Source: an uncultured Lacinutrix sp.
GTDB taxonomy: Bacteria; Bacteroidota; Bacteroidia; Flavobacteriales; Flavobacteriaceae
DNA length: 64,000 bases
Direction of reading: 5' to 3'
Assembly: GCF_947500325.1 (NCBI RefSeq)
Contig: NZ_CANMRQ010000003.1
Coordinates: 248,001 to 312,000, forward strand
Numbering within the stretch: position 1 is the first letter of the stretch; each line of letters begins with the position of its first letter. The notes under the pieces are model-generated. The model was not told the DNA's origin. It worked only from the letters and a program-made list of their open reading frames with translations, and ran no database searches. Made by a program: the position numbers and the translations under genes. Below are positions 5,700 through 25,793 of the stretch, one piece after another.

Positions 5700-8600
5700 T
5701 TAGTTTCCTCCTTCAGGTAACTGTTGTATAAATAAGTATGTTGATGTTGGTGGCCCTCCAAAAACAGAGTTAGATGGATTATTAAATATATTGTTTCTAA
5801 TATGCAATACATCACTAGTTCCTCCAGAATACACGGTTACGCCATCCATATCTATATCTGTTGTATTGTAGCCTGCAGATTGGTAACTTGCTACTGGTGG
5901 TCCTCCAAAAACTGAATTATCAGGATCATTAAATACTTGACTTCTTATGTTTGGCACATCAGATTCTCCTCCAGAATAATTTAGTTTCCCATCGCCATTG
6001 GCATCTCCTGCCCACATCGCTACGACTCCACTTGGCATATTAAAAGTAGTTTGAGCATCGGTACCATAAGTAATTTGATTATTAGCATCTGTAAAATCTA
6101 CAGTAGTAACAGATTTTGATAATGCTATAACATTAGAACTCATAATTCCTAAATGATTTCTATGCTTGATTGTTACATAATAATTATCTTCAGAGGCACT
6201 AAAACTTAAAGCAGAAGTCCCATCTACATCTACTACATCTCCATCTCTTTGTAATAAAGCTGACTGACTATATAACACTGAAGTATTATCGTTTTTATCT
6301 CTTAATTCTACCCATATCCAATCTACAATAGCATCGCTGCCAGTAACTGTAAATACACTTGTATTACAAGTTAAGTTATCTACATATGGACTCTCTGTTG
6401 GTATATAGTTGGTCAAACGTAAATCATCACGCATTAAACTCTCTTCCCCTATATTAGGGTTTAAAATAGCTCCCTGTAACATTACTTTTGGTGACAGGTA
6501 AATAACATCACAACTAACATCATTAAAACTGGCGGTTCCATCTACATTACTTGTCCAGTTATTAGTACTCCATAAAGCGTCATCTACTAAAATACAAGTC
6601 AAACTTGGATTATTTAAAGCATTGAATACAGTAAAATTGATATTATTTCCGTTTTTGGAATTTAAACTAGTTAACAGATTATTAGATACATCTATGTATG
6701 TTAATACTGAATTCAAACTCAAATCTAAGTCTACGATATCATTGTTTTGACACAATACACTTTCAAGATTTACATTATTACTAAGATCTAAAGCTACTAG
6801 GTTATTATTAAAAATAGTTAAAATTTTTAATAATACATTATTACTAAAATCCACTACTGTTAATCCACTATTAGATGCAAATAATTCTTCTAAAACTGTA
6901 TTACTTGTTATATTAATAGTTGTAAGATTTGCGTTATCTGTAATGTCTAGTATTTTTAGATTTAGATTAGTGCTTAAATTTAATGATGTCAATGCATTAT
7001 CACCTACATACAAATTCTCTAATGCCACAAAATCTTCGATACCTGTTAAACTTGCAATATCCTGACTTGTAGCGTTTAAATTAGTTACTACCTCAATTAA
7101 AGCAGTAGGAACCAGACCATCATTATTAATATCGTCGTAACCCAAAGTACCTAACCATGCTTCAAAATTAGTATCTGGAATAGCTGTATAACGACAATAG
7201 GTATCAGAGAAAATTGCTGTAGCATCTTTAGTCCACCCACTATAATCATTTGCTAAATCATCTACTAAAATACAAGCTAAATTAGTGTTACCTAAAGCAT
7301 TAAAATTTGTTACATTATTATTATTACCGTTTTTAATAGTTAAGTTTTCCAATTCATTGTTATATACATGTATTATTTCTAATGCTGTATTTAAGGAAAG
7401 ATCTAAGGTTGATAGGTTTGTATTGTAGCTATATAGATCTTCTAATAAAAGATTCTGTGATAGATCTAAAGTAACAATATCTGTATCAAAACATATTAAC
7501 CTTTTTAATAGCGTATTGTTAGTAAGGTCTAAAGTTGTTATATCTGTACTTCTACAATTTAACTCTTCCAATTGTGTATTGTTTGCCAAATTTAGAATTG
7601 TTATAGGATTTGCAGTACATTGTAACGCTGTTAAATTAACATTATTACTAACATCCAACGCAGCTATATTATTAAGATTACAATTAAATGTTTGTAAAGC
7701 TATAAAGTCTTCGATTCCAGTGATATCTGAAATACTTTTGTTTCTTACATCTAAGTCTGTAACAACTTCTATTAAAGCAGTTGGTACTTTTCCGTCATTT
7801 GTTGTACTATCGTCGTAACCTAACAATCTTAATTCTGCTTCGAAATTTGCATCTGGTATTAGAGTATAACGGCAATACGTATCTGAGAAACTTGTTGAAG
7901 CGTCTTTAGTCCATGTACTATAATCATTTGATAAATCATCTACTAAAATACATGATAAACTAGGGTTATTGTTCGCTGCAAAATTGGTGACATTCGTGTT
8001 ATTGCCATTATTAACATTTAAGAAACTTAAATTACTGTTATTCTGACAGGTTAATTCTAGCAATGCAATATTACTACTCAAATCTAGATTTGAAATATTG
8101 TTATCTTCAACAAATAGTGTTTGCAATAAGACATTATTTGCTAAGTCTAATGCAGTTAGATCATTTGCAGCAAGGTCTAAATCTATTAACTGTGTATTCA
8201 ATGAAACGTCTATGTTTGTTATTGAATTGCCATATACTTTCAAACTTTGTAAACTTGTATTATTTGTTACGCCTAGACTTGTTAAGCCACAATTGAAAGC
8301 ACTTAATGATAGTAAATTTAAATTGTTAGAAAGATCTATAGATGTCAACGAATTATTATTTGTAGATAATAAAACTTCTAGGGCAGTAAAATCTTCTATT
8401 CCTGTTAAATCTGCAATTGATTGATTTGAAACATTTAGATTGGTTACAACTTCAATTAATCGTGTTGGTACTCTTCCATCTGCAGAAGCATCATCATAAC
8501 CTAAAGCCTCTAATCTAGCTTCAAAATTAGCATCTGGAATTAATGTGTAATCACAATCTGTATCACTAAAGTTTACATTCCCGTCTATAATCAACCAATT

Positions 8601-11600
8601 AGTTGTTGAATATGCTGCATCATCTACTAAAACACATGCTAAATCTGCATTTCCTGTTAATTGGAAATTGGTACCTCCAGTAATATTTGTATTCGTACCA
8701 TTTTTAAGGTTCAATGAGGCTAAACTATTACTGCTTGCTCTAAATGAATTTAGCGCTGGATTATTGGTTAAATCCAGTGTAACAAAGTCATTACCACTTC
8801 CCCAAAAAGAGGTTAAAGCAACATTATTACTTAAATCTATTGCAGTTAAATCATTACCTGAAAGCCATAACACCTTTAAATCTAGGTTATTTGTAATGTC
8901 TAAACTAGTTAGTGAGCAGTTTTCCGCTTTGAAGCCTACCAATAAGGTATTTGCTGAAAGGTCTATTGTAGTAAGGTTATTACTCCTAATAATTAACTGT
9001 CTTAATTCAATATTATTAGTAACATCTATAGTGCTTAGCGAGTTATAACCTACATCTAAACTTTTTAATGCTCGGAAATCTTCAATACCAGTTAAGTCTG
9101 CAATGCCTTTGCTTTCTACATTTAATGTTTCTATAACTTCAATAAGCTGTGTGGGTACTTGTCCGTCTCCAGAAATATCATCATAGCCCTGAGCTTCTAA
9201 CTCTGCTTCAAAATTAGTATCAGGAATTGCTGTGTAACGACAATATGTACCATCATTAAAGGTTACTCCCGAATCAATATCAGTCCAGTTAGTTGTACTA
9301 TATGTTGCGTCATCAACTAAAATACAGGTTAAATCTGGATTATTGTTGACTCTAAATGTAGTTACATTTGTATTATTTCCATTTTGGACATTTAAATAAG
9401 TTAACTCACAATCGACACATTCTAAATCTTCTAATAGTGTATGATTACTAAAATCTATATTGGCAATGGTATTATAAGATAAATACACTGCCCATAATTG
9501 AAGGTTATTTGATACATCTATCTCTACTAATGAATTGTTTATGACATCTAATGTCTCTAATACTGTATTTGCACTAATATCTAATGAGGTAAGAAAATTT
9601 GTATCAATATCTAAATCTACTAAATCCGTATTTTGAGATACATCAATCGTTATTAAGCTATTCTCGAAAGCAAATATTTGTTCTAAAGCCACATTGTTTG
9701 AAACATCTATAGATGCAATGCTATTTTTTGAAAAATTAAGGCTTTCTAAAGCTGTATTTGAAGTGATATTTAAAGCTGTTAATATATTTGACGAACAGTT
9801 TAAATTTGTAAGTGCTGTAAAATCTTCTATACCCGTTAAATCTGCAATAGATTTACTAGAGACACCTAAAGAAGTTACCACCTCTATTAAGACTGTTGGT
9901 ACTTGTCCATCTGCAGTAATATCATCATAACCTAAGGCTTCTAAAGCTGCTTCAAAATTGACATCTGGTGTAGCTGTATAACGACAATACGTATCACTAA
10001 AGTTTGTTGTAACATCTTTAGTCCATGTGCTATAATCATTAGCAAGATCATCTACGACAATACAACTTAAGCTTGAATTTCCTGATGAATTATAATACGT
10101 AACATTAGTATTGTTTCCGTTTTTTACATTTAATCCAGTAAGATCGTTATCCTCAAAAGCTAGTATTGTTAACTGTGTATGGCTACTTAAATCAATAGAT
10201 CCTGAAACATTATTTCTTTCAAAAGCAAGAAACGTTAAAGCTGTATTATTGGTAACGTCTAAACTAGTTAATTCGTTATCACTTAAATCTAATAACGTCA
10301 ATGCTGTATTTTGAGATACATCTAGAGTTGTTAACGTGTTTTCATCTAAGTCTAATTCTTTTAAAGCGGTGTTTTGAGATACATCGATACTTGCAAGTCC
10401 ATTATTTTCATAAAATAATTTTTCGAGTAAAAGATTATTACTAATATCAATAGTAAGTATACTGTTATCCGAAATATCTAAATCTACTAAGGCTGCAAAA
10501 TCCTCAATTCCTGTTATAGCTGAAATATTTTCATTACGCACATCTAAGGATGTTACTACTTCAATAAGCGCTGTTGGTACTTGACCATCTGCTGAAATAT
10601 CATCGTAGCCTAAAGCTTCTAAAGCAGCTTCAAAATTAGCATCTGGAATAGCTGTATAACGACAATATGTATCGCTAAAACTTGTTGTTGTATCTTTTAT
10701 CCAGAAAGTATAATCTTTATTTAAATCATCAATCAAAATACAGCTTAGATTTGCATTTCCAGATGCATCAAAATCGGTTATAATTTGATTAAATCCGTTT
10801 TTAAAATTAAAAGAGATCAAATCATTGTCTGCACATTCAACTTGTGTCAAGGCAACGTTTGTGTTAAGATTTAATGTGGTTAAATTATTTCCCGAAAGTC
10901 TTAATATTCTTAACACTGTTTGATTTGATAAATCTATTGTAGTTAGATCATTATTGGTTAAGTTAATATTTTCTATTAACGGATTTTGTGAAATATCTAA
11001 ACTTGTTAATGAATTATCAAGTAAATAAACATGTGACAAACTTGTATTATTAGTTATGTCTAGACTTGTTATACCTGTTTGATTAAGATTAAGAACAGTT
11101 AAGTTTGTATTGTTAGCAACATCTACAGTTGTAAAAGTATTGTTTCTTAAATTTAGATTATCTAAAGCAATATTAGCACTTACATCTACAGAAGTTAGTT
11201 GATTGTATCTTCCAGACACATCAGTTAAGTTTGTATTTGCACCAAGATTTAAAGTTGCTACATCATTATTATCAAAATTTATGATTTCTAGGTTTACATT
11301 ATTACTAACATCTAAACTGGTTAACGTATTACCATTTAGATTTAAATCTATTAAAGCCGTAAAATCTTGAATTCCTGTTAAATCTGCTATAGATTGAGTA
11401 TTTACATCCAAACTCGTTACTACTTCTATTAAAGCTGTTGGCACTTGACCATCATTTGTTGCACTGTCGTCGTAACCTAATGTTCTTAAAGCGGTTTCAA
11501 AATTTGCATCTGGTATAAGTGTATAATTACCACAGTATAAACTAAAATTAGAGGCCGCATCTATATTGGTCCAATTGAGAGCACTCCATGCAGGGTCATC

Positions 11601-14600
11601 AACTAAAATACAATTTACGGGTGTTCCTGACGTATTGAAACCTGTAATACTAGTATTCGTTCCGTTTTGAATGTTTAAACTTGATAAAGTTGTTATATCA
11701 TTAGCTATTAAATTAGTTAAAGATGTATTATTGGATAAATCTAGCGCTGTAAGGTTAGTTGAATAAACATCTAGTACTTCAAGATTACTATTTAAGCTTA
11801 AATCTAGCGATGTGATTTTAGAATCCCATAAATCTAAGTTCACTAAGTTTGTGTTAGAGCTGGTATCTACAGTTAAAAAATCACAACTTGTACAGTTAAA
11901 ACGGGTTAAAGCTGTATTTGCTGATAAATCTACTGTAGTTCCTGAATATTGTCGTAATCTAAAGTCTTCGAGTAGCGTATTATTACTCACATCTATTGTA
12001 CTAAAAACATTTCCACTAGCTGCCCAAAGCGTTTTTAAATTTATAAGATTCGATACATCTAAGGATGTTAAGCTATTATTATTCAATTTTAATGATTCTA
12101 GAGCTACAAAATCCTGGATTCCGGTTAAATTAGCAATACCTTCATTAGATACATCCAAGCTCGTTAACACCTCTATTAAAGAAGTTGGCACTTGTCCATC
12201 ACTAGAAATATCGTCATAGCCTAAAGCTTCTAGAGCAGCTTCAAAATTGGCATCTGGTATAAGTGTATAATCACAAAATGTACTGCTAAAAGTAGCGCCA
12301 CCATCATTAGTCCAATTAGTAGTACTCCATACGGCATCATCTACTAAAATACATGTTAAGTTTGAATTTCCTCGTGCATCAAAATAAGTAAAATTGGTGT
12401 TATTTCCGTTTTGAATGTTTAGATCTGTTAGATCATTATTTTGAACGCTGAAATTGACTAATGCTGTATAACCTGAAAAATCGTAATCTCCTGATAAATT
12501 ACAACCAGACAATGTAACTCTTGTTATTATTGAGGGATTTGCTACTGTAAAAGAAGATAAGTTAGCATTATTATAAGCTATTAACTGCTTAAGTGCCATA
12601 TTACTACTAACATCAAGTGTCGTTAAATTATTATTATCTACATATAAATCTTCAAGAGCGGTAAATGCTTCAATACCTGTCAAATCAGTAATATTTTCTA
12701 ACCGTACATTTAAAGAAGTGGCTGTATTAATTAGTGCTGTAGGTACTTTGTTATCTCCTAAATAATTATCATAAGTCAAATTATTTAATGCATTTTCAAA
12801 ATTAGTGTCTGGTATTTGGGTATAAGCCATTTCATTCACCGTAAAGCTTCCCAGGCTTTTAGCACAAGATTCATCTCCAAACGCTACCCATACATCATAT
12901 GTATCGGCAGCTAAACCTGTTAATTCTCCGGTACCTAAACTATCATTAAATACAAAAGCATATGAAACTCCTCCATCTATACTAAATTTTACATTTGTTT
13001 GTGTTGGCTCATCATTGAAGCTAACTTGTATAATTCCATCAATTTCAGCAATATCAGCTTCTATAATAGCATCTACCGTTGCAGTTACAGTAGGAACTGA
13101 AGTTATTGTGTAAATTCCTAATTGTCTAGGGCAATCATTATTTCCTCTTCTAACCCAAACATCATAATCACCTGCTGCCAAACCTGAAATTGTTTGTGAA
13201 CTTGTAGTATCGTCATAGTTATAAGGATAACTAGCTCCACCATCTATACTAAACTCAAGGCTTGTCATGCCAGAAACATCATCAAAATTCACTATTAATG
13301 AACCATCCGTAGTACTTGAGCATCCTGCTCCATTTGAGACTATACTCGTCACATTAGGAAGTGTATCTACATAAAGATACCTGTTATTTGTTGTTGATTC
13401 TGTACCACAATCATTCGAAAATTCTAATCTAAAACGAACACCATCTAATGTTTCACTTGGATTTGTAATGGTTAAACTATTAGTTGTTACTCCTGCATAA
13501 GTTGAATCATCACTTAAATCTGCCCAACTACCACTTGCATCGTTTTGCCATATCATAGTATTAGCATAATCTGCTTCGGCAAAAAATGTTGCTGTTTGGT
13601 CTGTACAAACCGTTTGATTAGAGGTATCTGTAGTGATAGATGGAGTTTGCGAGCTATATACCGTTCCTACTCCAACAGCATAAAATGCATTGGTTACAGA
13701 CTCTTCTTCTGGAGAGCAAAAACCATATAAGTCTTGAGATGCTTGTATAGCAGCATCTCTAGCTGCAGCATAATCTGATGTACTAGTTAAATAAATACTT
13801 TCCATTCTATATGCTATAGCTGCAGCTTTATCTATTCCTAACCCCGAAACAGAAAAAGCATTACCTATATCATTTGTTCCAGACCCACCATTTACTAATA
13901 AATAAAACCAATAATTTAAAACACCACTATTGGTATGTATGCCACAATAATCATTATTAGTGCCATTAGGTGTGCAACCTGCAACATCATACCAATATGT
14001 ACCACCATAGGTATCTGGTTGTCCATAAGCGTTAGGATTTGACATAGATCTAATCACTCCACCTCCATTTTCATCATTAATTAACCAAGCATTTTTTGTT
14101 GTTCCATGATTAGCTGTAGCATAAGTATCTATTGCAGCTGCCCATATATCTGACATTCCTTCATTTAATGCTCCAGATTCTAATTCATAATCTAAATTAG
14201 AGTTTGCATTGGTAACACCATGTCCAATTTCATGACCAACAACATCTAAATTTGTTAAAGGTGTAAATGAACCTGCTCCATCACCGTAAATCATAAAACC
14301 TCTTTGACTATTAAAAGAAAGCCAAGCAGCATTAGTATAATTTGTATCAAAATGCACATAAGAAACTATGGCAGCATCGGCAGCATCATAACTATCTCTA
14401 CTGTGTTCGTTTTTCCAATAATCATAAACTACTTGCGCACCCCAATGTGCATCTAAAGCATATTGATCTTCGTTAGCACTCATTTCTCCTGCTGTCCAAT
14501 TATTATCATTATCTGTAAAATCTGAAACAAAAGCAGAATTGTAATCATTTACATCATCATGATTATTAAAATTAACAGTCACAACCCCATTACGCGTTCC

Positions 14601-15398
14601 TGCACCATGATTATGACCTTGCCCTGTATTCGCCCTAGTTTGATCGTATAATATATAATCTGTATCTAAAGTTGTTTCTATAGTTTGTGATCCTGAATAT
14701 ACTGTAGCAGCAGTTCCTGAAACAAATGGTCTAGCTAAATCATCTTCTAATTTATGGTCATGATTGGTAGGGTCGTGACTTTCATCACTGCTATCGAAAC
14801 AATTGTAGACTTGATTTTTAAATTTTAATACTTCTCCTGATTGTGCATCAACATACACAATACCCATCTTTAATTCTGGTTTCGAGGCTCCAATTCCAAT
14901 AGCATAAACCAAATGCATTGTTTTTTTTCTCCTATTAGGCAGAATCAATAATTCAGGCTCTGGAATAACAGTTTTTGAGATATCATTTTCACCTATCCAA
15001 AACACATCATTGCCTCTCATATATGTTTGAGCAATATTTTTAATACTCGAAATTGGAATACTTGGACTAGTTCTAACTTCATTTGGATTAAAATATGCGC
15101 CACCAAAAGTTTCTCTTACTCCATTTCTTTCATGCATTTTTAATATTCCGAAATGAACTTTAATACCATTATAATATTGTTGGTATGTTCGATGCCTCAT
15201 TCCTAGCTTATCGGTTTCAGTTTTTATTAGTCGAAATTCTGTTCCTCCAACAGGCTTTAATTCAGAATTAAAAATACTTTGGTCAGTAGATTTTTGATTT
15301 AGTTCATCTACCTTTTTTAATCTTATCTGTCCAAAATTGTCTTGAGCTTTAATTAAATTAAAACTTAATAGTAATAACAATAGTAATACTCTATTCAT
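5700..15398 (-). CDS. Giant secreted M4 thermolysin-like metalloprotease with nine LRR modules
   Basis: 3232 aa. Domains in order: signal peptide (1-18, cleavage near IKA); FTP and PepSY propeptide (about 40-200); M4 peptidase (about 220-590) with zinc motif HEIGH at 389-393, third ligand E413 in GALNEGMSD, and the catalytic GIHTNSGV segment; an Ig-like segment and two related FSIDGG beta domains (about 590-850); nine LRR modules (about 856-2965); a beta domain; and a duplicated Ca-binding dockerin-like tail (GDANGDGKLNY and TDIDMDGVTVY). Each LRR module begins with a cap like IPDANFEAALEALGYDD, runs through repeats of the LTSLDVSNNTxL type, and ends with a CILVDD cap. Thermolysin-family proteases are normally far shorter. 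No T9SS type A domain is seen; the tail may be an alternative anchoring or sorting signal. Protease activity is well supported. The LRR part presumably binds protein or glycan targets. Confidence 0.9.
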   Translation of the reverse strand: MNRVLLLLLLLSFNLIKAQDNFGQIRLKKVDELNQKSTDQSIFNSELKPVGGTEFRLIKTETDKLGMRHRTYQQYYNGIKVHFGILKMHERNGVRETFGGAYFNPNEVRTSPSIPISSIKNIAQTYMRGNDVFWIGENDISKTVIPEPELLILPNRRKKTMHLVYAIGIGASKPELKMGIVYVDAQSGEVLKFKNQVYNCFDSSDESHDPTNHDHKLEDDLARPFVSGTAATVYSGSQTIETTLDTDYILYDQTRANTGQGHNHGAGTRNGVVTVNFNNHDDVNDYNSAFVSDFTDNDNNWTAGEMSANEDQYALDAHWGAQVVYDYWKNEHSRDSYDAADAAIVSYVHFDTNYTNAAWLSFNSQRGFMIYGDGAGSFTPLTNLDVVGHEIGHGVTNANSNLDYELESGALNEGMSDIWAAAIDTYATANHGTTKNAWLINDENGGGVIRSMSNPNAYGQPDTYGGTYWYDVAGCTPNGTNNDYCGIHTNSGVLNYWFYLLVNGGSGTNDIGNAFSVSGLGIDKAAAIAYRMESIYLTSTSDYAAARDAAIQASQDLYGFCSPEEESVTNAFYAVGVGTVYSSQTPSITTDTSNQTVCTDQTATFFAEADYANTMIWQNDASGSWADLSDDSTYAGVTTNSLTITNPSETLDGVRFRLEFSNDCGTESTTNNRYLYVDTLPNVTSIVSNGAGCSSTTDGSLIVNFDDVSGMTSLEFSIDGGASYPYNYDDTTSSQTISGLAAGDYDVWVRRGNNDCPRQLGIYTITSVPTVTATVDAIIEADIAEIDGIIQVSFNDEPTQTNVKFSIDGGVSYAFVFNDSLGTGELTGLAADTYDVWVAFGDESCAKSLGSFTVNEMAYTQIPDTNFENALNNLTYDNYLGDNKVPTALINTATSLNVRLENITDLTGIEAFTALEDLYVDNNNLTTLDVSSNMALKQLIAYNNANLSSFTVANPSIITRVTLSGCNLSGDYDFSGYTALVNFSVQNNDLTDLNIQNGNNTNFTYFDARGNSNLTCILVDDAVWSTTNWTNDGGATFSSTFCDYTLIPDANFEAALEALGYDDISSDGQVPTSLIEVLTSLDVSNEGIANLTGIQDFVALESLKLNNNSLTSLDVSNLINLKTLWAASGNVFSTIDVSNNTLLEDFRLRQYSGTTVDLSANTALTRFNCTSCDFLTVDTSSNTNLVNLDLWDSKITSLDLSLNSNLEVLDVYSTNLTALDLSNNTSLTNLIANDITTLSSLNIQNGTNTSITGFNTSGTPVNCILVDDPAWSALNWTNIDAASNFSLYCGNYTLIPDANFETALRTLGYDDSATNDGQVPTALIEVVTSLDVNTQSIADLTGIQDFTALIDLNLNGNTLTSLDVSNNVNLEIINFDNNDVATLNLGANTNLTDVSGRYNQLTSVDVSANIALDNLNLRNNTFTTVDVANNTNLTVLNLNQTGITSLDITNNTSLSHVYLLDNSLTSLDISQNPLIENINLTNNDLTTIDLSNQTVLRILRLSGNNLTTLNLNTNVALTQVECADNDLISFNFKNGFNQIITDFDASGNANLSCILIDDLNKDYTFWIKDTTTSFSDTYCRYTAIPDANFEAALEALGYDDISADGQVPTALIEVVTSLDVRNENISAITGIEDFAALVDLDISDNSILTIDISNNLLLEKLFYENNGLASIDVSQNTALKELDLDENTLTTLDVSQNTALTLLDLSDNELTSLDVTNNTALTFLAFERNNVSGSIDLSSHTQLTILAFEDNDLTGLNVKNGNNTNVTYYNSSGNSSLSCIVVDDLANDYSTWTKDVTTNFSDTYCRYTATPDVNFEAALEALGYDDITADGQVPTVLIEVVTSLGVSSKSIADLTGIEDFTALTNLNCSSNILTALNITSNTALESLNFSKNSIASIDVSNNVALEQIFAFENSLITIDVSQNTDLVDLDIDTNFLTSLDISANTVLETLDVINNSLVEIDVSNNLQLWAVYLSYNTIANIDFSNHTLLEDLECVDCELTYLNVQNGNNTNVTTFRVNNNPDLTCILVDDATYSTTNWTDIDSGVTFNDGTYCRYTAIPDTNFEAELEAQGYDDISGDGQVPTQLIEVIETLNVESKGIADLTGIEDFRALKSLDVGYNSLSTIDVTNNIELRQLIIRSNNLTTIDLSANTLLVGFKAENCSLTSLDITNNLDLKVLWLSGNDLTAIDLSNNVALTSFWGSGNDFVTLDLTNNPALNSFRASSNSLASLNLKNGTNTNITGGTNFQLTGNADLACVLVDDAAYSTTNWLIIDGNVNFSDTDCDYTLIPDANFEARLEALGYDDASADGRVPTRLIEVVTNLNVSNQSIADLTGIEDFTALEVLLSTNNNSLTSIDLSNNLNLLSLSAFNCGLTSLGVTNNTSLQSLKVYGNSITNIDVSLNTQLIDLDLAANDLTALDLANNVLLQTLFVEDNNISNLDLSSNIALLELTCQNNSNLSFLNVNNGNNTNVTNFAANNNPSLSCILVDDLSNDYSTWTKDASTSFSDTYCRYTLIPDANFEAELRLLGYDDSTTNDGKVPTALIEVVTDLDVRNKSISDITGIEDFIALQTFNCNLNNIAALDVSNNVNLTALQCTANPITILNLANNTQLEELNCRSTDITTLDLTNNTLLKRLICFDTDIVTLDLSQNLLLEDLYSYNTNLSTLDLSLNTALEIIHVYNNELENLTIKNGNNNNVTNFNALGNTNLACILVDDLANDYSGWTKDATAIFSDTYCRYTAIPDTNFEAWLGTLGYDDINNDGLVPTALIEVVTNLNATSQDIASLTGIEDFVALENLYVGDNALTSLNLSTNLNLKILDITDNANLTTINITSNTVLEELFASNSGLTVVDFSNNVLLKILTIFNNNLVALDLSNNVNLESVLCQNNDIVDLDLSLNSVLTYIDVSNNLLTSLNSKNGNNINFTVFNALNNPSLTCILVDDALWSTNNWTSNVDGTASFNDVSCDVIYLSPKVMLQGAILNPNIGEESLMRDDLRLTNYIPTESPYVDNLTCNTSVFTVTGSDAIVDWIWVELRDKNDNTSVLYSQSALLQRDGDVVDVDGTSALSFSASEDNYYVTIKHRNHLGIMSSNVIALSKSVTTVDFTDANNQITYGTDAQTTFNMPSGVVAMWAGDANGDGKLNYSGGESDVPNIRSQVFNDPDNSVFGGPPVASYQSAGYNTTDIDMDGVTVYSGGTSDVLHIRNNIFNNPSNSVFGGPPTSTYLFIQQLPEGGN
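6490..12840 (-). repeat. Nine tandem LRR modules inside the M4 protease gene
   Basis: About 6.3 kb of in-frame coding repeats. Module starts, recognised by the (I/T)PDxNFExxL cap, lie near 12830, 12265, 11520, 10650, 9965, 9230, 8540, 7860 and 7180. Spacing is about 570-870 bp, with most modules close to 690 bp. Length differences come from the number of 20-21-residue LRR units between the caps. Modules 4 and 5, and modules 8 and 9, look especially alike, suggesting expansion by unequal recombination. Confidence 0.85.
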
Positions 15399-21248: not shown

Positions 21249-21869
21249 TTAAATAGGATTAATAACTCTATCTATATCAATATTTATAGAGAAATACGCT
21301 CCTGATAACTTACTAGATTTACTGCCTTCAAATTTAAAAAATGGTGTTAATCCATAGTCAAATTTTAATTCAGCTTCTAAAAATTTCAAAAAACGTTGAC
21401 CTATAGCCAATTCTAGACCTATGCTCATGTTTTCGAAATCAGACTTTACATCTTTTCCATTAAATTCAGCTTTACTTAATAATGCAAACTTAGGACCTAA
21501 CAACATATAAAAACCTCTTCTGTATTCTTCTCCAAAATCGTATTTAAAATTAGGATTAATATCTATATAACTTAAATTATATATTTCATCTAGACTAGCA
21601 TTAGCAAAACCTTTTTCAAAAGATTTTTTATTAAAAGATAATTCTAGTTTTACCCCGATATTCTTATTAAATCCATACTCAAAATAAGCTCCTAAATTTG
21701 GCACTACAAAATCACCATTTCCAGAATCGAAAAACACATCGTTTGGTCCTCCGCTTGAAAACTGATCATTGTATATATTAGCTCCTAAAATAACACCATA
21801 AGATAAGTCTTGCGCTTTACTAATTGCAATTGAAAATAAAAAAATGAGACCAAATAATACTTTTTTCAT
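21249..21869 (-). CDS. Outer-membrane beta-barrel protein (PorT-like family)
   Basis: 206 aa. Signal peptide (about 19 residues, ISKAQ cleavage) followed by alternating amphipathic strands (LGAYFEYGFNKNIGVKLELSF, MLLGPKFALLS, MSIGLELAIGQRF) and a small C-terminal strand (AYFSINIDI). This matches the outer-membrane beta-barrel domain of PorT-like proteins by layout and length. Function is unknown; many such proteins are small structural or assembly barrels. It is on the same strand as the Rhs tip and lipoprotein but separated by 338 bp, so probably not in their operon. Confidence 0.75.
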   Translation of the reverse strand: MKKVLFGLIFLFSIAISKAQDLSYGVILGANIYNDQFSSGGPNDVFFDSGNGDFVVPNLGAYFEYGFNKNIGVKLELSFNKKSFEKGFANASLDEIYNLSYIDINPNFKYDFGEEYRRGFYMLLGPKFALLSKAEFNGKDVKSDFENMSIGLELAIGQRFLKFLEAELKFDYGLTPFFKFEGSKSSKLSGAYFSINIDIDRVINPI

Positions 21870-22207: not shown

Positions 22208-23182
22208 TTATTTTGCGTCTATTTTTAATAACACTAAGTCTTCACTACTATTAATACCTAAAACATAATAAGAATCACCTTTTTGTATTACTTTTAAATT
22301 AGGTATACCTTCTTCATTTATAATTTTATTCTTTTCTAAAGTAAATTCGTTTCCTATATATATATCTTTATTTAATTTATAGGTTTTTCTATCAAAAAAA
22401 TAAAGTTTACTTCTATTGTCATAATAAAAGCCAATTATAAAATTTCGTGACATATATGCAATATGAAAGTTTTCAATATCATCTATACCTTTCATATATT
22501 CTAAAGGCCTTTGTTTTGTTAATTTTATTTTATTATTTCTAATAGAAAAATTATTTAAAGAATCAGTCACACTTTCAAAATAACTAAAACCAAAATTTGA
22601 TTTTATATAAGATGTATCAATAAAATCCATTTTTATAGAATCAATTACTTCTAAATTTTTATTTAACAATTTCACTCCATTATAATCACATATAAGGCTA
22701 TACTCATTTTCTAAAAAACTATATACAATATTTTCTTGTTGATAAACTTTATTCTTTGTATTTGTTTTTTCATTATATAAAACGACAGAATTAAAATTCT
22801 GAATTGTATAATCATCTTTCAAACCTTTATTAAAATTAAATATATAATCAAGATTATTCGTATTATCAAAAATAGATGGTCTAAAACTTAACTCACTATA
22901 AGTAGTGTTTTTAATATCTATTTTCATAATATGATTATTAATAACAAAAGATAAAGTATCTTTCTCTACCTCAAAATCATTTAAATTTTCTATAGAAAAT
23001 TTTTCATTTTTGATTTTAATTCTAAATAATTCTTTACTTTTCAAATCATTACTTGGCTTCTTTTCAGTAGTACTAATTTTACTAATGTTTATTTCTTTTT
23101 TAGAAGAAATATTTTCCTTGATTATTCTTTTTTTACAAGATAAAGCAATAAAAAAGATAATGATAAGTCCTGTTTTTTTCAT
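22208..23182 (-). CDS. Lipoprotein, candidate immunity protein for the Rhs NlpC/P60 tip
   Basis: 324 aa. A type II signal peptide ends in the lipobox IALSC (C16), so the mature protein would be membrane-anchored outside the cytoplasm. The body is rich in Lys, Asn and Ile and predicted mostly beta, with repeated short strands suggestive of a propeller-like fold (for example LYFFDRKTYKLNKDIYIG). No family recognised. Its start lies 7 bp after the stop of the Rhs fragment, the standard position of an immunity gene. A periplasm-facing lipoprotein would be the right location to neutralise a peptidoglycan-cutting NlpC/P60 toxin. That role is inferred from position and localisation only. Confidence 0.7.
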   Translation of the reverse strand: MKKTGLIIIFFIALSCKKRIIKENISSKKEINISKISTTEKKPSNDLKSKELFRIKIKNEKFSIENLNDFEVEKDTLSFVINNHIMKIDIKNTTYSELSFRPSIFDNTNNLDYIFNFNKGLKDDYTIQNFNSVVLYNEKTNTKNKVYQQENIVYSFLENEYSLICDYNGVKLLNKNLEVIDSIKMDFIDTSYIKSNFGFSYFESVTDSLNNFSIRNNKIKLTKQRPLEYMKGIDDIENFHIAYMSRNFIIGFYYDNRSKLYFFDRKTYKLNKDIYIGNEFTLEKNKIINEEGIPNLKVIQKGDSYYVLGINSSEDLVLLKIDAK

Positions 23183-23189
23183 AAATATT

Positions 23190-24296
23190 TTAACGTCTTC
23201 CTAAACCAACAAATGGTTGATTAAACCCTCTCATTTCTCCATTTTTCATTAATCTCTGCACTTTTATTGATCCAGGTTTATAATTATTTTTTTGAGCTTG
23301 AATAACTTTTATCTTAACTCCATTAGCAGTAGTAGTAACACTCAAAACTATACCAGTATGATATGCTTTTTTTCCTCTTTTCCAAAATATATGGTCTCCA
23401 GGACTAGCGTTAGATAGATTATCTGACCAAACACCATTTTTTTGATACCAAACAGCTTGGTCAAATGCAACTCTAGGTATTGAATACCCTGCTTGACATG
23501 CTACATCTTGTGTAAATCTTGAACAATCAACTGTACCCTTTTTATTACTCATAGAATATATTCTTTGATCTCCTTTATAGAGTGCTGCAATAGATGATTC
23601 CGAGTTAGGAGGTTCAACACCTTCTTGCATAGGACCGACGAAATCATTTACTAATTTAGATTTAGAACTTGTTTGAGAAGGTGAAAACCAATTTGGAGGT
23701 TTACTATTGCCTACAATAGGTTGCATTATAACAGGTTGCACAACTATAGCTTTAAAATAACTCCCAGTATAACTATTTGAACCATCTAACCCTCCATAAA
23801 ATTGATGCTCAATTATAGCTGGTGTACCCAGTGCAGCATTAATTTGTGCTCCTATAGGATCTGGGTCTGTCATACCTCCTGTAGGGTCTACTTTACTTAT
23901 AGGGTTATTACCCATTCCTAAATATGGGCTATAAAATTCGTCCATTGGATCTGTCGTTAACCATCTCCCTATTCTACTATCCCATAAACGTAATTCAAAA
24001 CCTTCCATTCCTGTTTCAGTATCTTCCTCTGCAAATTCGCCTTGGTAACCATAACGGTAATCTCCTTCGACATTTCTATCAGGCATTGATGAACCAAAAG
24101 GATAATAATCTGTTTTAGCAATTAAAGATACAGCATTTGTTCCATTTTTAGCTATTACTGCTCTTACATTTCCTAAATGATCTGTAATTTGATACACATA
24201 ATTACCTCCTGTTTTACTACCACTTTCTCTATTAAAAACTCCAATTCTACTTAGTCCATATAATGGTAGAGGTGTAAATTTGGTGTAATGAAAGTA
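23190..24296 (-). pseudogene. Truncated Rhs protein tip with NlpC/P60 domain (orphan toxin module)
   Basis: The frame is open from just after a stop at 24297-24299. It begins with Rhs-core sequence (YTKFTPLPLYGLSRIG, YQITDHLGNVRAV, YYPFGSSMPDRN, RIGRWLTTDP, YSPYLGMGNNPISKVDP) and has no ATG at its head. The first usable start is GTG at 24197, giving 335 aa. After the Rhs core boundary, a variable region leads to an NlpC/P60-like peptidase domain: C225 in GTVDCSRFTQ, H280 in KKAYHTGIVLS, and Q300 or Q302 in VIQAQ, numbered from the GTG. Family knowledge: Rhs C-termini are interchangeable toxins, and NlpC/P60 enzymes cleave peptidoglycan peptides or act as amidases. Without the long Rhs shell it cannot be a complete delivered toxin. 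It fits an orphan tip awaiting recombination. Confidence 0.8.
24269..24291 (+). repeat. 23-bp direct repeat, right copy
   Basis: GAGGTGTAAATTTGGTGTAA followed by TGA, nearly identical to 21031-21053. It overlaps the extreme 5' end of the Rhs homology on the minus strand, so it could be either a recombination footprint or simply conserved Rhs coding DNA. Confidence 0.6.
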
Positions 24297-24398
24297 CTAA
24301 AAAGAGATAAGCAAAGGCAAACTGAAAGCCCTATAGTTATTAACAAAATGAGTGATAGCAACCAAAGGAAAACTTTATACCATTAAAGGAAAACAACT

Positions 24399-25793
24399 CT
24401 ACTTCCCAATACAGAAATTAGCAAAAATATTACCTAATAAATCATCACTTGTAATTTCTCCGGTAATTTCTCCAAAGTGATACAACGCCTGACGAATATC
24501 TATAGCCATTAAATCTCCTGAGAGCCCCATTTCGAGGCCAGATTTTACTTTATTCACTTCTTCAAAGGCTTTTAAAAGTGAATCGTAATGGCGTGTATTT
24601 GTTACAATCGTTTCATTATTACGAAGCGCTCCTGTATTTACAAAACCTATCAATTTTTCTTTAAGTTCTTCTACGCCTACTCCAGATTTAGCAGAGAGCA
24701 AATGGAGGTTTTCAAATTCAGATTTAAGAGTGTTTAATTCTGAATCATTTAAAGTATCAATCTTATTAGCAATAATAATTAAAGGTTTTAGTGGAAAACG
24801 ATTTTTAATTTTTTCTATTTCTACTTTAAGACGTTTGCTTTCTGTTTTAAATTCTTCTGCAGAAAATAATAATACAACGACTTGCGCTTGTTCCATTTTC
24901 TCGAAAGTCTTTTTAATACCTATACTTTCTACAACATCTTTAGTTTCGCGTATTCCAGCAGTATCTATAAAACGAAATCCAATACCATCGATTACCAACT
25001 CGTCTTCAATAGTATCTCGTGTTGTCCCGGCAATATCACTAACTATAGCTCGTTCTTCATTTAAAAGCGCATTTAATAAGGTCGATTTACCAACGTTCGG
25101 CTCTCCAACAATTGCTACAGGAATCCCATTTTTAATAACATTACCAACGGCAAAAGAATCTATTAATCTTTTTAATACAAATATAATTCTGTTTATTAGT
25201 TCTTTAAACTGTGTTCTATCTGCAAATTCGACATCTTCTTCGGCAAAATCAAGTTCTAACTCTATTAACGATGCAAAATTCATTAATTCCTCACGAAGTT
25301 TAGCTATCTCACTTGAAAAACCACCACGCATTTGTTGCATCGCTATTTGATGTGATGCTTCATTATCACTAGCTATTAAATCGGCAACAGCCTCTGCTTG
25401 ACTTAAATCTAATTTTCCATTTAAGAATGCTCTTAATGTAAACTCTCCTGCATCTGCCATGCGGCATCCTTTTCTAAGAAATAATTGTATTATTTCTTGT
25501 TGAATATATATAGATCCATGACACGATATTTCAACAACATTTTCGCCTGTGTAAGAATTAGGGTTTTTAAAAATGGACACTAAAACTTCATCAATAGTAC
25601 GATCATTATCAATAATATGCCCTAAGTGAATTGTATGGGTTTTTTGATTACTAAGCGACTTTTTACTTTTAACAGACTTAAAATTAGCATCTGCAAACGC
25701 TATTGCTTTAGGTCCAGAAAGTCTAATTATAGCTACAGCTCCTGCTCCAGAAGCAGTAGCTAGTGCTACTATAGTGTCGTCATTATAATTCAT
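24399..25793 (-). CDS. mnmE: tRNA uridine-5-carboxymethylaminomethyl(34) synthesis GTPase MnmE
   Basis: 464 aa, full family length. It catalyses, with MnmG, the cmnm5 modification of wobble U34 in several tRNAs. Seen: an N-terminal formyl-THF-binding domain (DTIVALATASGAGAVAIIRL), a central helical region, a G domain with P-loop GEPNVGKSTLLN, TRDTIEDE, DTAGIR and NKID, and the diagnostic C-terminal CIGK. The start at 25793 is supported by YNDDTIVALAT, which matches family N-termini. A TATTTTTG at 25799-25806 on the minus strand just upstream may be its -7 element, implying a very short leader. Standard housekeeping gene. Confidence 0.97.
   Translation of the reverse strand: MNYNDDTIVALATASGAGAVAIIRLSGPKAIAFADANFKSVKSKKSLSNQKTHTIHLGHIIDNDRTIDEVLVSIFKNPNSYTGENVVEISCHGSIYIQQEIIQLFLRKGCRMADAGEFTLRAFLNGKLDLSQAEAVADLIASDNEASHQIAMQQMRGGFSSEIAKLREELMNFASLIELELDFAEEDVEFADRTQFKELINRIIFVLKRLIDSFAVGNVIKNGIPVAIVGEPNVGKSTLLNALLNEERAIVSDIAGTTRDTIEDELVIDGIGFRFIDTAGIRETKDVVESIGIKKTFEKMEQAQVVVLLFSAEEFKTESKRLKVEIEKIKNRFPLKPLIIIANKIDTLNDSELNTLKSEFENLHLLSAKSGVGVEELKEKLIGFVNTGALRNNETIVTNTRHYDSLLKAFEEVNKVKSGLEMGLSGDLMAIDIRQALYHFGEITGEITSDDLLGNIFANFCIGK

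What the first reader, a model, noticed from the sequence alone, without database searches (positions are those of the whole stretch)
22208..23182. Lipoprotein directly after the Rhs tip as a new immunity family candidate
It begins 7 bp after the toxin-tip stop, has a clear lipobox (C16), and belongs to no family I recognise. A cell-wall hydrolase toxin would act in the periplasm, where a lipid-anchored immunity protein would be needed. Together the two genes form a plausible undescribed toxin-immunity pair.
Basis: inference. Interest (0 to 1): 0.7.

Follow-up and report, generated by a model that had tools for sequence, protein, structure and literature searches.

The report
Lipoprotein guarding against an adjacent cell-wall toxin
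A membrane-anchored protein with no known relatives sits directly behind a detached cell-wall-cutting toxin gene and is most likely the antidote to that toxin, one of many lipid-anchored antidotes in this bacterial family that seem hardly described.

Summary
In detail: a 324-aa lipoprotein (lipobox C16) starts 7 bp behind an Rhs tip with an NlpC/P60 domain. The tip is an orphan (5'-truncated Rhs). The lipoprotein matches no Pfam, NCBIfam, PHROG or PADLOC family above cut-off and no solved structure. No convincing homologue appeared in 397 same-family, 395 same-class and 99 near-relative genomes (overlapping sets), so "family" is unsupported: it is a singleton.

Immunity is supported indirectly. 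Behind 133 Rhs tips of the same family, the next gene has a lipobox in 37 (28%), against 27 of 373 other ORFs of the same loci (7%). The export state of the next gene follows tip chemistry: Pfam nuclease families appear only among 54 tips before genes classed as unexported, M91 and JAB1 only among 71 before exported ones. In the own genome both tips with a Pfam wall-hydrolase domain (NlpC/P60, M23) precede lipoproteins. The 37 lipoproteins compared form 31 clusters, so a singleton is normal.

Best reading: a periplasm-facing immunity lipoprotein for the NlpC/P60 tip, in a gained, probably silent orphan cassette behind mnmE. It works like Tse1/Tsi1 without detectable sequence similarity. Binding and neutralisation were not tested.

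The parts
22208..23182 (-). 324-aa lipoprotein, putative immunity protein; lipobox cysteine C16, mature start CKKRIIKENI
   Evidence: no family match above cut-off; GC 19.6% against 31.3% for the window
23183..23189 (-). 7-bp spacer between tip stop and lipoprotein start
   Evidence: no terminator-like site between the two genes
23190..24197 (-). orphan Rhs tip: end of the Rhs core followed by an NlpC/P60 domain, with C225 and H280 aligned to the catalytic Cys and His, Q300 in the place of the third residue
24198..24296 (-). open extension of the same frame upstream of the listed GTG, with Rhs-like sequence by eye, which indicates a 5'-truncated Rhs
24399..25793 (-). mnmE; within about 1.5 kb behind it none of 11 congeners shows this cassette

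Best explanation
The gene encodes the immunity protein of the NlpC/P60 toxin tip in front of it. It is exported by Sec and lipidated at C16 (inferred from the lipobox). It probably stays on the periplasmic side of the outer membrane, because its mature start CKKRIIKENI lacks the acidic stretch that sends Bacteroidota lipoproteins to the cell surface (inferred). There it would bind the tip when another cell delivers it and cover the C225/H280 active site, so that peptidoglycan is not cut (inferred by analogy with Tse1/Tsi1). The tip here is an orphan without export signals, so in this strain the lipoprotein more likely guards against incoming toxin, or against the tip after recombination, than against a toxin the strain now secretes.
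For: Position: same strand, 7 bp. Domain and catalytic residues of the tip. After-tip lipobox 37 of 133 against 27 of 373 other ORFs of the same loci, Fisher p 9.7e-9; without near-duplicates 36 of 129, p 1.3e-8, and within 50 bp 33 of 124, p 9.6e-8; 25 of 282 background ORFs of the own genome. Chemistry of tips: HNH (4), GIY-YIG (2), EC869-type (1) and Tox-REase-7 (1) among 54 tips before genes classed as unexported and none among the 71 others; M91 (6) and Toxin-JAB1 (4) among those 71 and none among the 54 (Fisher p 0.0009 and 0.005). Own genome, 12 tips scanned: the M23 tip and the NlpC/P60 tip precede lipoproteins, while two AHH tips and a Tox-URI2 tip precede proteins without an export signal by eye. 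A toxin-like protein with a C-terminal M23 domain in another genome has a lipoprotein (by eye) 7 bp behind it. Published export signal (PMC5080379, passages) against the mature start.
Against: No homologue, so no conserved adjacency. In the own genome two convergent tips (one with weak Peptidase_M10/M43 hits) have no same-strand ORF close behind them, so tips do not always carry a partner. No NlpC/P60 or M23 tip was among the 125 surveyed tips, so the wall-hydrolase link rests on few cases. M91 and JAB1 are not known from my calls to act in the periplasm. One of the M23 toxin-like proteins (L269) is followed by another gene before any lipoprotein. Both structure predictions failed (mean pLDDT 37.7 and 38.1). 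The export-signal argument is weak: after-tip lipoproteins have only slightly fewer acidic residues at +2 to +6 than background lipoproteins (0.73 against 1.12).
Confidence: 0.75

Rival explanations
1. The lipoprotein is an unrelated envelope protein that happens to lie behind the tip after an insertion at the variable mnmE site.
For: Lipoproteins are common (25 of 282 ORFs; 27 of 373 in Rhs loci); none of 11 congeners has this cassette behind mnmE; no homologue ties it to toxins.
Against: 7-bp spacing on the same strand, no terminator-like site between; three- to fourfold higher rate of lipoproteins right behind tips; match of compartment with tip chemistry.
Confidence: 0.12
2. The lipoprotein is a partner in delivery or surface display of the toxin (carrier or chaperone), not an antidote.
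For: Surface lipoproteins can hold toxins: MafA is proposed to anchor MafB in Neisseria (passage in PMC3482391).
Against: A carrier should be conserved beside one backbone; after-tip lipoproteins are very diverse (31 clusters in 37), and the mature start lacks the published surface-export signal.
Confidence: 0.04
3. The lipoprotein was an antidote once, but the cassette is a decaying relic: toxin truncated, lipoprotein no longer under selection or expressed.
For: The tip lacks start and export signals; strongly AT-rich lipoprotein gene (GC 19.6%); absent behind mnmE in 11 congeners.
Against: Both reading frames are open over their full length and the catalytic Cys and His are kept; an orphan Rhs tip with a working immunity gene is known from Salmonella (PMC3967940, abstract).
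Confidence: 0.09

Closest known systems
Tse1/Tsi1 (Tae1/Tai1) of Pseudomonas aeruginosa (PMC3391265, passages read)
   Same: NlpC/P60-fold peptidoglycan hydrolase as toxin, immunity protein in the periplasm encoded beside it; Tsi1 is mostly beta, like a fragmented beta-propeller, and blocks the catalytic His.
   Different: Tse1 is a T6SS effector, not an Rhs tip; the lipoprotein matches no PDB chain at E up to 1; its beta fold is only a low-confidence hint.
Imm65 with Tox-JAB-1 (PMC3482391, passages read)
   Same: Bacteroidota, Rhs, immunity protein with lipobox; called there the only lipoprotein among the immunity proteins of that collection.
   Different: Different toxin; the window protein has no Pfam match at E 0.01. 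The same table lists no immunity protein for Tox-NLPC/P60.
VgrG2b-PA0261 / Tpe-Tpi metallopeptidase pairs (PMC6899460, passages read)
   Same: Periplasmic peptidase toxin; some immunity homologues are outer-membrane lipoproteins with the bulk in the periplasm.
   Different: Metallopeptidase, T6SS spike delivery; similarity of the immunity proteins was not tested.
Orphan rhs toxin/immunity module of Salmonella LT2 (PMC3967940, abstract read)
   Same: Toxin tip fragment without start or export signals, with linked immunity gene.
   Different: There the orphan lies behind a main rhs gene and recombines with it; here it stands beside mnmE, and the other Rhs cores of the genome that matched it share at most 42% protein identity.
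TANFOR polymorphic toxins of Bacteroidetes (PMC7073777, passages read)
   Same: Polymorphic toxins of the same phylum, some with peptidoglycan-hydrolase tips, immunity genes directly downstream and diverse in sequence.
   Different: Other backbone; the word lipoprotein does not occur in the main text.

Membership tests
Rhs polymorphic toxin with immunity gene | Rhs-associated core in front of a variable C-terminal domain | tested here: met
   TIGR03696 3.2e-13, residues 31-107; NLPC_P60 behind it
Rhs polymorphic toxin with immunity gene | immunity gene directly behind the tip on the same strand | tested here: met
   a gene is there with a 7-bp gap; that it gives immunity is inferred
Rhs polymorphic toxin with immunity gene | full-length gene with delivery signals | tested here: not met
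   frame opens at 24296 and holds only the end of the core; so filed as an orphan module
Rhs polymorphic toxin with immunity gene | immunity protein in the compartment where the toxin acts | tested here: met
   lipobox C16 by sequence pattern only; survey
Rhs polymorphic toxin with immunity gene | specific neutralisation by binding | not testable with these tools
   no complex prediction offered; no bench
NlpC/P60 peptidase | domain match with catalytic Cys and His | tested here: met
   Pfam 4.8e-8; C225 and H280 aligned with 9 NlpC/P60 proteins, third residue Q300 where these have His
Imm65 | lipobox and Imm65 sequence family, beside Tox-JAB-1 | tested here: inconclusive
   lipobox present, toxin differs; no Pfam match at E 0.01, but I did not check that Pfam holds an Imm65 model
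Tsi1/Tai1 immunity | sequence similarity to Tsi1 | tested here: not met
   no PDB chain at E up to 1; Tsi1 itself was not compared directly
Tsi1/Tai1 immunity | partial beta-propeller fold | tested here: inconclusive
   models are beta-rich but pLDDT 37.7 and 38.1; internal repeat not above shuffles, 49 of 300 reach it

The most novel reading that the evidence does not exclude
Lipid-anchored immunity is a large and barely described part of the Rhs arsenal of this bacterial family. About a quarter of Rhs tips carry a lipoprotein antidote, most outside known families, and the window protein, the longest of the 37 compared and a singleton, is a first candidate antidote for Rhs-borne NlpC/P60 toxins, blocking the active site from the periplasmic face of the outer membrane.
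Probability: 0.4. Interest if true: 0.55.

Novelty: new member of a known kind. Interest (0 to 1): 0.4.

Why it matters
Zhang et al. 2012 (PMC3482391, passages) listed Tox-NLPC/P60 without an immunity protein and knew a single lipoprotein immunity family. The pair here is a concrete, easily tested candidate. The survey behind it suggests a simple rule (the next gene's export signal hints at the compartment in which an unknown tip acts) and a set of after-tip lipoproteins of which at least 28 of 37 (window protein included) have no Pfam match at E 0.01.

Tried and rejected
Homologues of the lipoprotein: own genome (only itself); 397 genomes of the family (itself and one weak hit, E 4e-4, 28% over about 119 residues, where the ORFs look like a different kind of protein); 395 of the class (itself and three hits at E 0.001-0.006); 99 relatives including 12 congeners (itself and two hits at E 0.005-0.007); genome contigs, viral contigs (both by short exact peptide patterns, close relatives only) and plasmids none; phages only five hits at E 1. 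Sets overlap. In a small local set the first weak hit scores E 1.5e-5 and one class hit (L234) 6e-4; I did not read these as relatives, but they were not studied further.

More NlpC/P60 Rhs tips: 38 of 397 genomes matched the tip, own included, the others at E 5e-6 or weaker. A crude Rhs motif scan of 29 of these loci printed nothing; of five long frames read, four are ordinary NlpC/P60 lipoproteins and one printed a different protein. The tip has no close relative in genome contigs and only three weak hits in plasmids, all C40 peptidases by annotation. PF00877 in 20 Rhs-rich genomes gave 48 matches; I read 4, none an Rhs tip. PF01551 in 16 genomes: I read 17 places; L263 (two) and L269 look like polymorphic toxins whose backbone I do not recognise as Rhs, though my crude motif rule flagged the long frames of both.

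Beta-propeller idea: no usable model, internal repeats not above shuffles. Left as a guess.

The tip with a lysozyme-like look in L055 has no Pfam match, so it is not counted as a wall hydrolase.

Survey limits: rows came from the 150 listed cores (my count), ranked by E-value, so not a random sample. I fetched 137 and dropped 5 of the own genome, 2 with an internal stop and 6 too near a contig end. Of the 137, 4 had no next ORF by the rule. Nine of the 133 next ORFs, 4 of the 37 lipoproteins among them, start more than 50 bp behind the tip. For the Pfam tally I dropped 4 near-duplicates and 4 short tips. The 54 'unexported' cases include 3 with an internal hydrophobic stretch, and at least two (L137, L144) whose next protein looks exported by eye; several SIG/TM cases look like lipoproteins by eye. 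Pfam tallies are per family, not per tip, so 8 of 54 and 10 of 71 assume that different folds are different tips; with one family alone p is 0.03 (4 of 54) and 0.04 (6 of 71). The list was capped at 25 families; the repeat at E 0.004 was not capped and again shows no M91 or JAB1.

Full report
What is there. On the minus strand, mnmE (24399-25793) is followed by an open frame (from 24296) that holds the end of an Rhs core and an NlpC/P60 domain, then, 7 bp behind its stop, by a 324-aa lipoprotein (22208-23182), then by an outer-membrane beta-barrel gene (21249-21869). Rhs-like sequence reaches upstream of the GTG listed as start, so the toxin gene is a 5'-truncated Rhs: an orphan tip. Its catalytic Cys (C225) and His (H280) align with nine NlpC/P60 proteins; the third position has Gln (Q300) where the nine have His (that Gln is allowed there is recalled). 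The host is one of the Bacteroidota, by gene content probably Flavobacteriaceae; no call names it.

The lipoprotein. Lipobox with cysteine 16, mature start CKKRIIKENI. No match above cut-off in Pfam or NCBIfam, none at E 0.1 in PHROGs or PADLOC, none in the PDB by sequence at E 1. No convincing homologue in 397, 395 and 99 genomes (overlapping sets), nor in genome contigs, viral contigs, plasmids or phages; six weak genome hits are told under Tried and rejected. Two single-sequence AlphaFold2 runs gave beta-rich but unusable models (pLDDT 37.7 and 38.1). Its gene has 19.6% GC against 31.3% for the window, which suits a gained gene.

Is position behind a tip meaningful? The Rhs core was found in 111 of 299 genomes of the family. 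Of 137 fetched tips, 133 have an ORF close behind by one fixed rule. In 37 it fits the lipobox pattern, in 38 it has another hydrophobic start, in 58 neither (55 CYT, 3 with an internal hydrophobic stretch). Other ORFs of 60-520 aa further down in the same loci fit the lipobox in 27 of 373 (Fisher p 9.7e-9), background ORFs of the own genome in 25 of 282 (p 1.3e-6). The rate is thus three to four times higher behind tips. Without near-duplicates (36 of 129) or within 50 bp (33 of 124) the result stands.

Does the next gene fit the tip? After removing duplicates and short tips, 125 remain. Pfam tallies at E 0.01: before lipoproteins (35 tips) M91 3, Toxin-JAB1 3, Ntox23 2, Ntox44 2, other metallopeptidases and one stray hit, no nuclease family by name. 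Before other exported proteins (36) M91 3, JAB1 1, lipase-like, Tle3-like and a few other single hits, no nuclease family by name. Before genes classed as unexported (54) HNH 4, AHH 3, GIY-YIG 2, restriction-type nucleases, ADP-ribosyltransferases, HINT and others, no M91 and no JAB1 (capped list, uncapped at E 0.004). So the export state of the partner follows the kind of toxin, most clearly for nucleases, which must reach the cytoplasm. No NlpC/P60 or M23 tip was among these 125, so the wall-hydrolase case rests on the own genome (NlpC/P60 in the window; M23 in L060, followed by a lipoprotein at 22 bp) and on M23 toxin-like proteins of another backbone in one other genome (L263). Against the rule: two convergent tips of the own genome, one weakly metallopeptidase-like, have no close partner on their strand, and L269 has another gene between M23 protein and lipoprotein.

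A singleton is normal here. The 36 after-tip lipoproteins (one duplicate left out) plus the window protein fall into 31 clusters by phmmer at E 0.001; the window protein links to none. At E 0.01 at most 9 of the 37 match a Pfam family (MORN_2 in 3, DUF6843, DUF6156 and four weaker ones), none a named immunity family. The lack of homologues therefore speaks against 'family' but not against immunity.

Side of the membrane. The published surface-export signal of Bacteroidota lipoproteins is acidic: QKDDE in Capnocytophaga, SDDFE in Flavobacterium johnsoniae, at +2 to +6 (PMC5080379, passages). The window protein has KKRII there. That points to the periplasmic face, where an NlpC/P60 hydrolase would act, but it is a weak argument, since after-tip lipoproteins as a group are only a little less acidic there than background ones (0.73 against 1.12).

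Cassette and site. Of 13 genomes of the genus, 12 including the own have a full-length mnmE match; in the other 11 the roughly 1.5 kb read behind mnmE show no Rhs tip with lipoprotein, and most differ from one another (L283 and L286 share a small ORF, L288 and L289 another). The cassette thus looks like a local gain at a variable site. Other Rhs cores of the genome that matched it share at most 42% protein identity, so recombination with them, as described for the Salmonella orphan tip (PMC3967940, abstract), looks unlikely now (inference). The lipoprotein may matter chiefly as a shield against incoming toxin.

Comparison. It works like Tse1/Tsi1 (NlpC/P60-fold hydrolase, periplasmic antidote that blocks the catalytic His; PMC3391265, passages) and like the metallopeptidase pairs whose antidotes can be outer-membrane lipoproteins (PMC6899460, passages). 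By location it resembles Imm65, called the only lipoprotein in the 2012 survey, which lists no antidote for Tox-NLPC/P60 (PMC3482391, passages). I found no report of a lipoprotein antidote for an NlpC/P60 Rhs tip in the listings of searches of an open-access library; I read only the papers named here, and other literature was not searched.

Verdict. A likely immunity lipoprotein, new in sequence, of a known kind. The more interesting result is the size and variety of the lipid-anchored class behind Rhs tips.

Noticed in passing
L097-L233 (137 Rhs tip regions of unnamed same-family genomes): Lipoproteins are three to four times as frequent directly behind Rhs tips as elsewhere (37 of 133 against 27 of 373 and 25 of 282), and at least 28 of the 37 compared (window protein included) have no Pfam match at E 0.01.
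   Followed up: yes
L059 (own genome C1:452500-459500): Two convergent Rhs tips, one with weak Peptidase_M10/M43 hits, have no same-strand ORF close behind: toxins without an obvious antidote, perhaps not aimed at bacteria.
   Followed up: no
L263 (G177 contig 111): A toxin-like protein with a C-terminal M23 domain on an unrecognised backbone has a lipoprotein (by eye) 7 bp behind it, then a second short M23 ORF overlapping another lipoprotein.
   Followed up: partly
window 24198-24398 and L279-L290: The region behind mnmE varies among the 11 congeners read; two (L283, L286) carry a similar small cysteine-rich, helix-turn-helix-like ORF there (by eye), as at an insertion hotspot.
   Followed up: partly
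window 5700-15398: 3232-aa protein with a metallopeptidase-like start and a long array of leucine-rich-like repeats (by eye).
   Followed up: no
L055 (own genome C2:28000-37500): Tip without a Pfam match but lysozyme-like by eye, followed at 3 bp by a lipoprotein with the same FIALSC lipobox as the window protein.
   Followed up: partly
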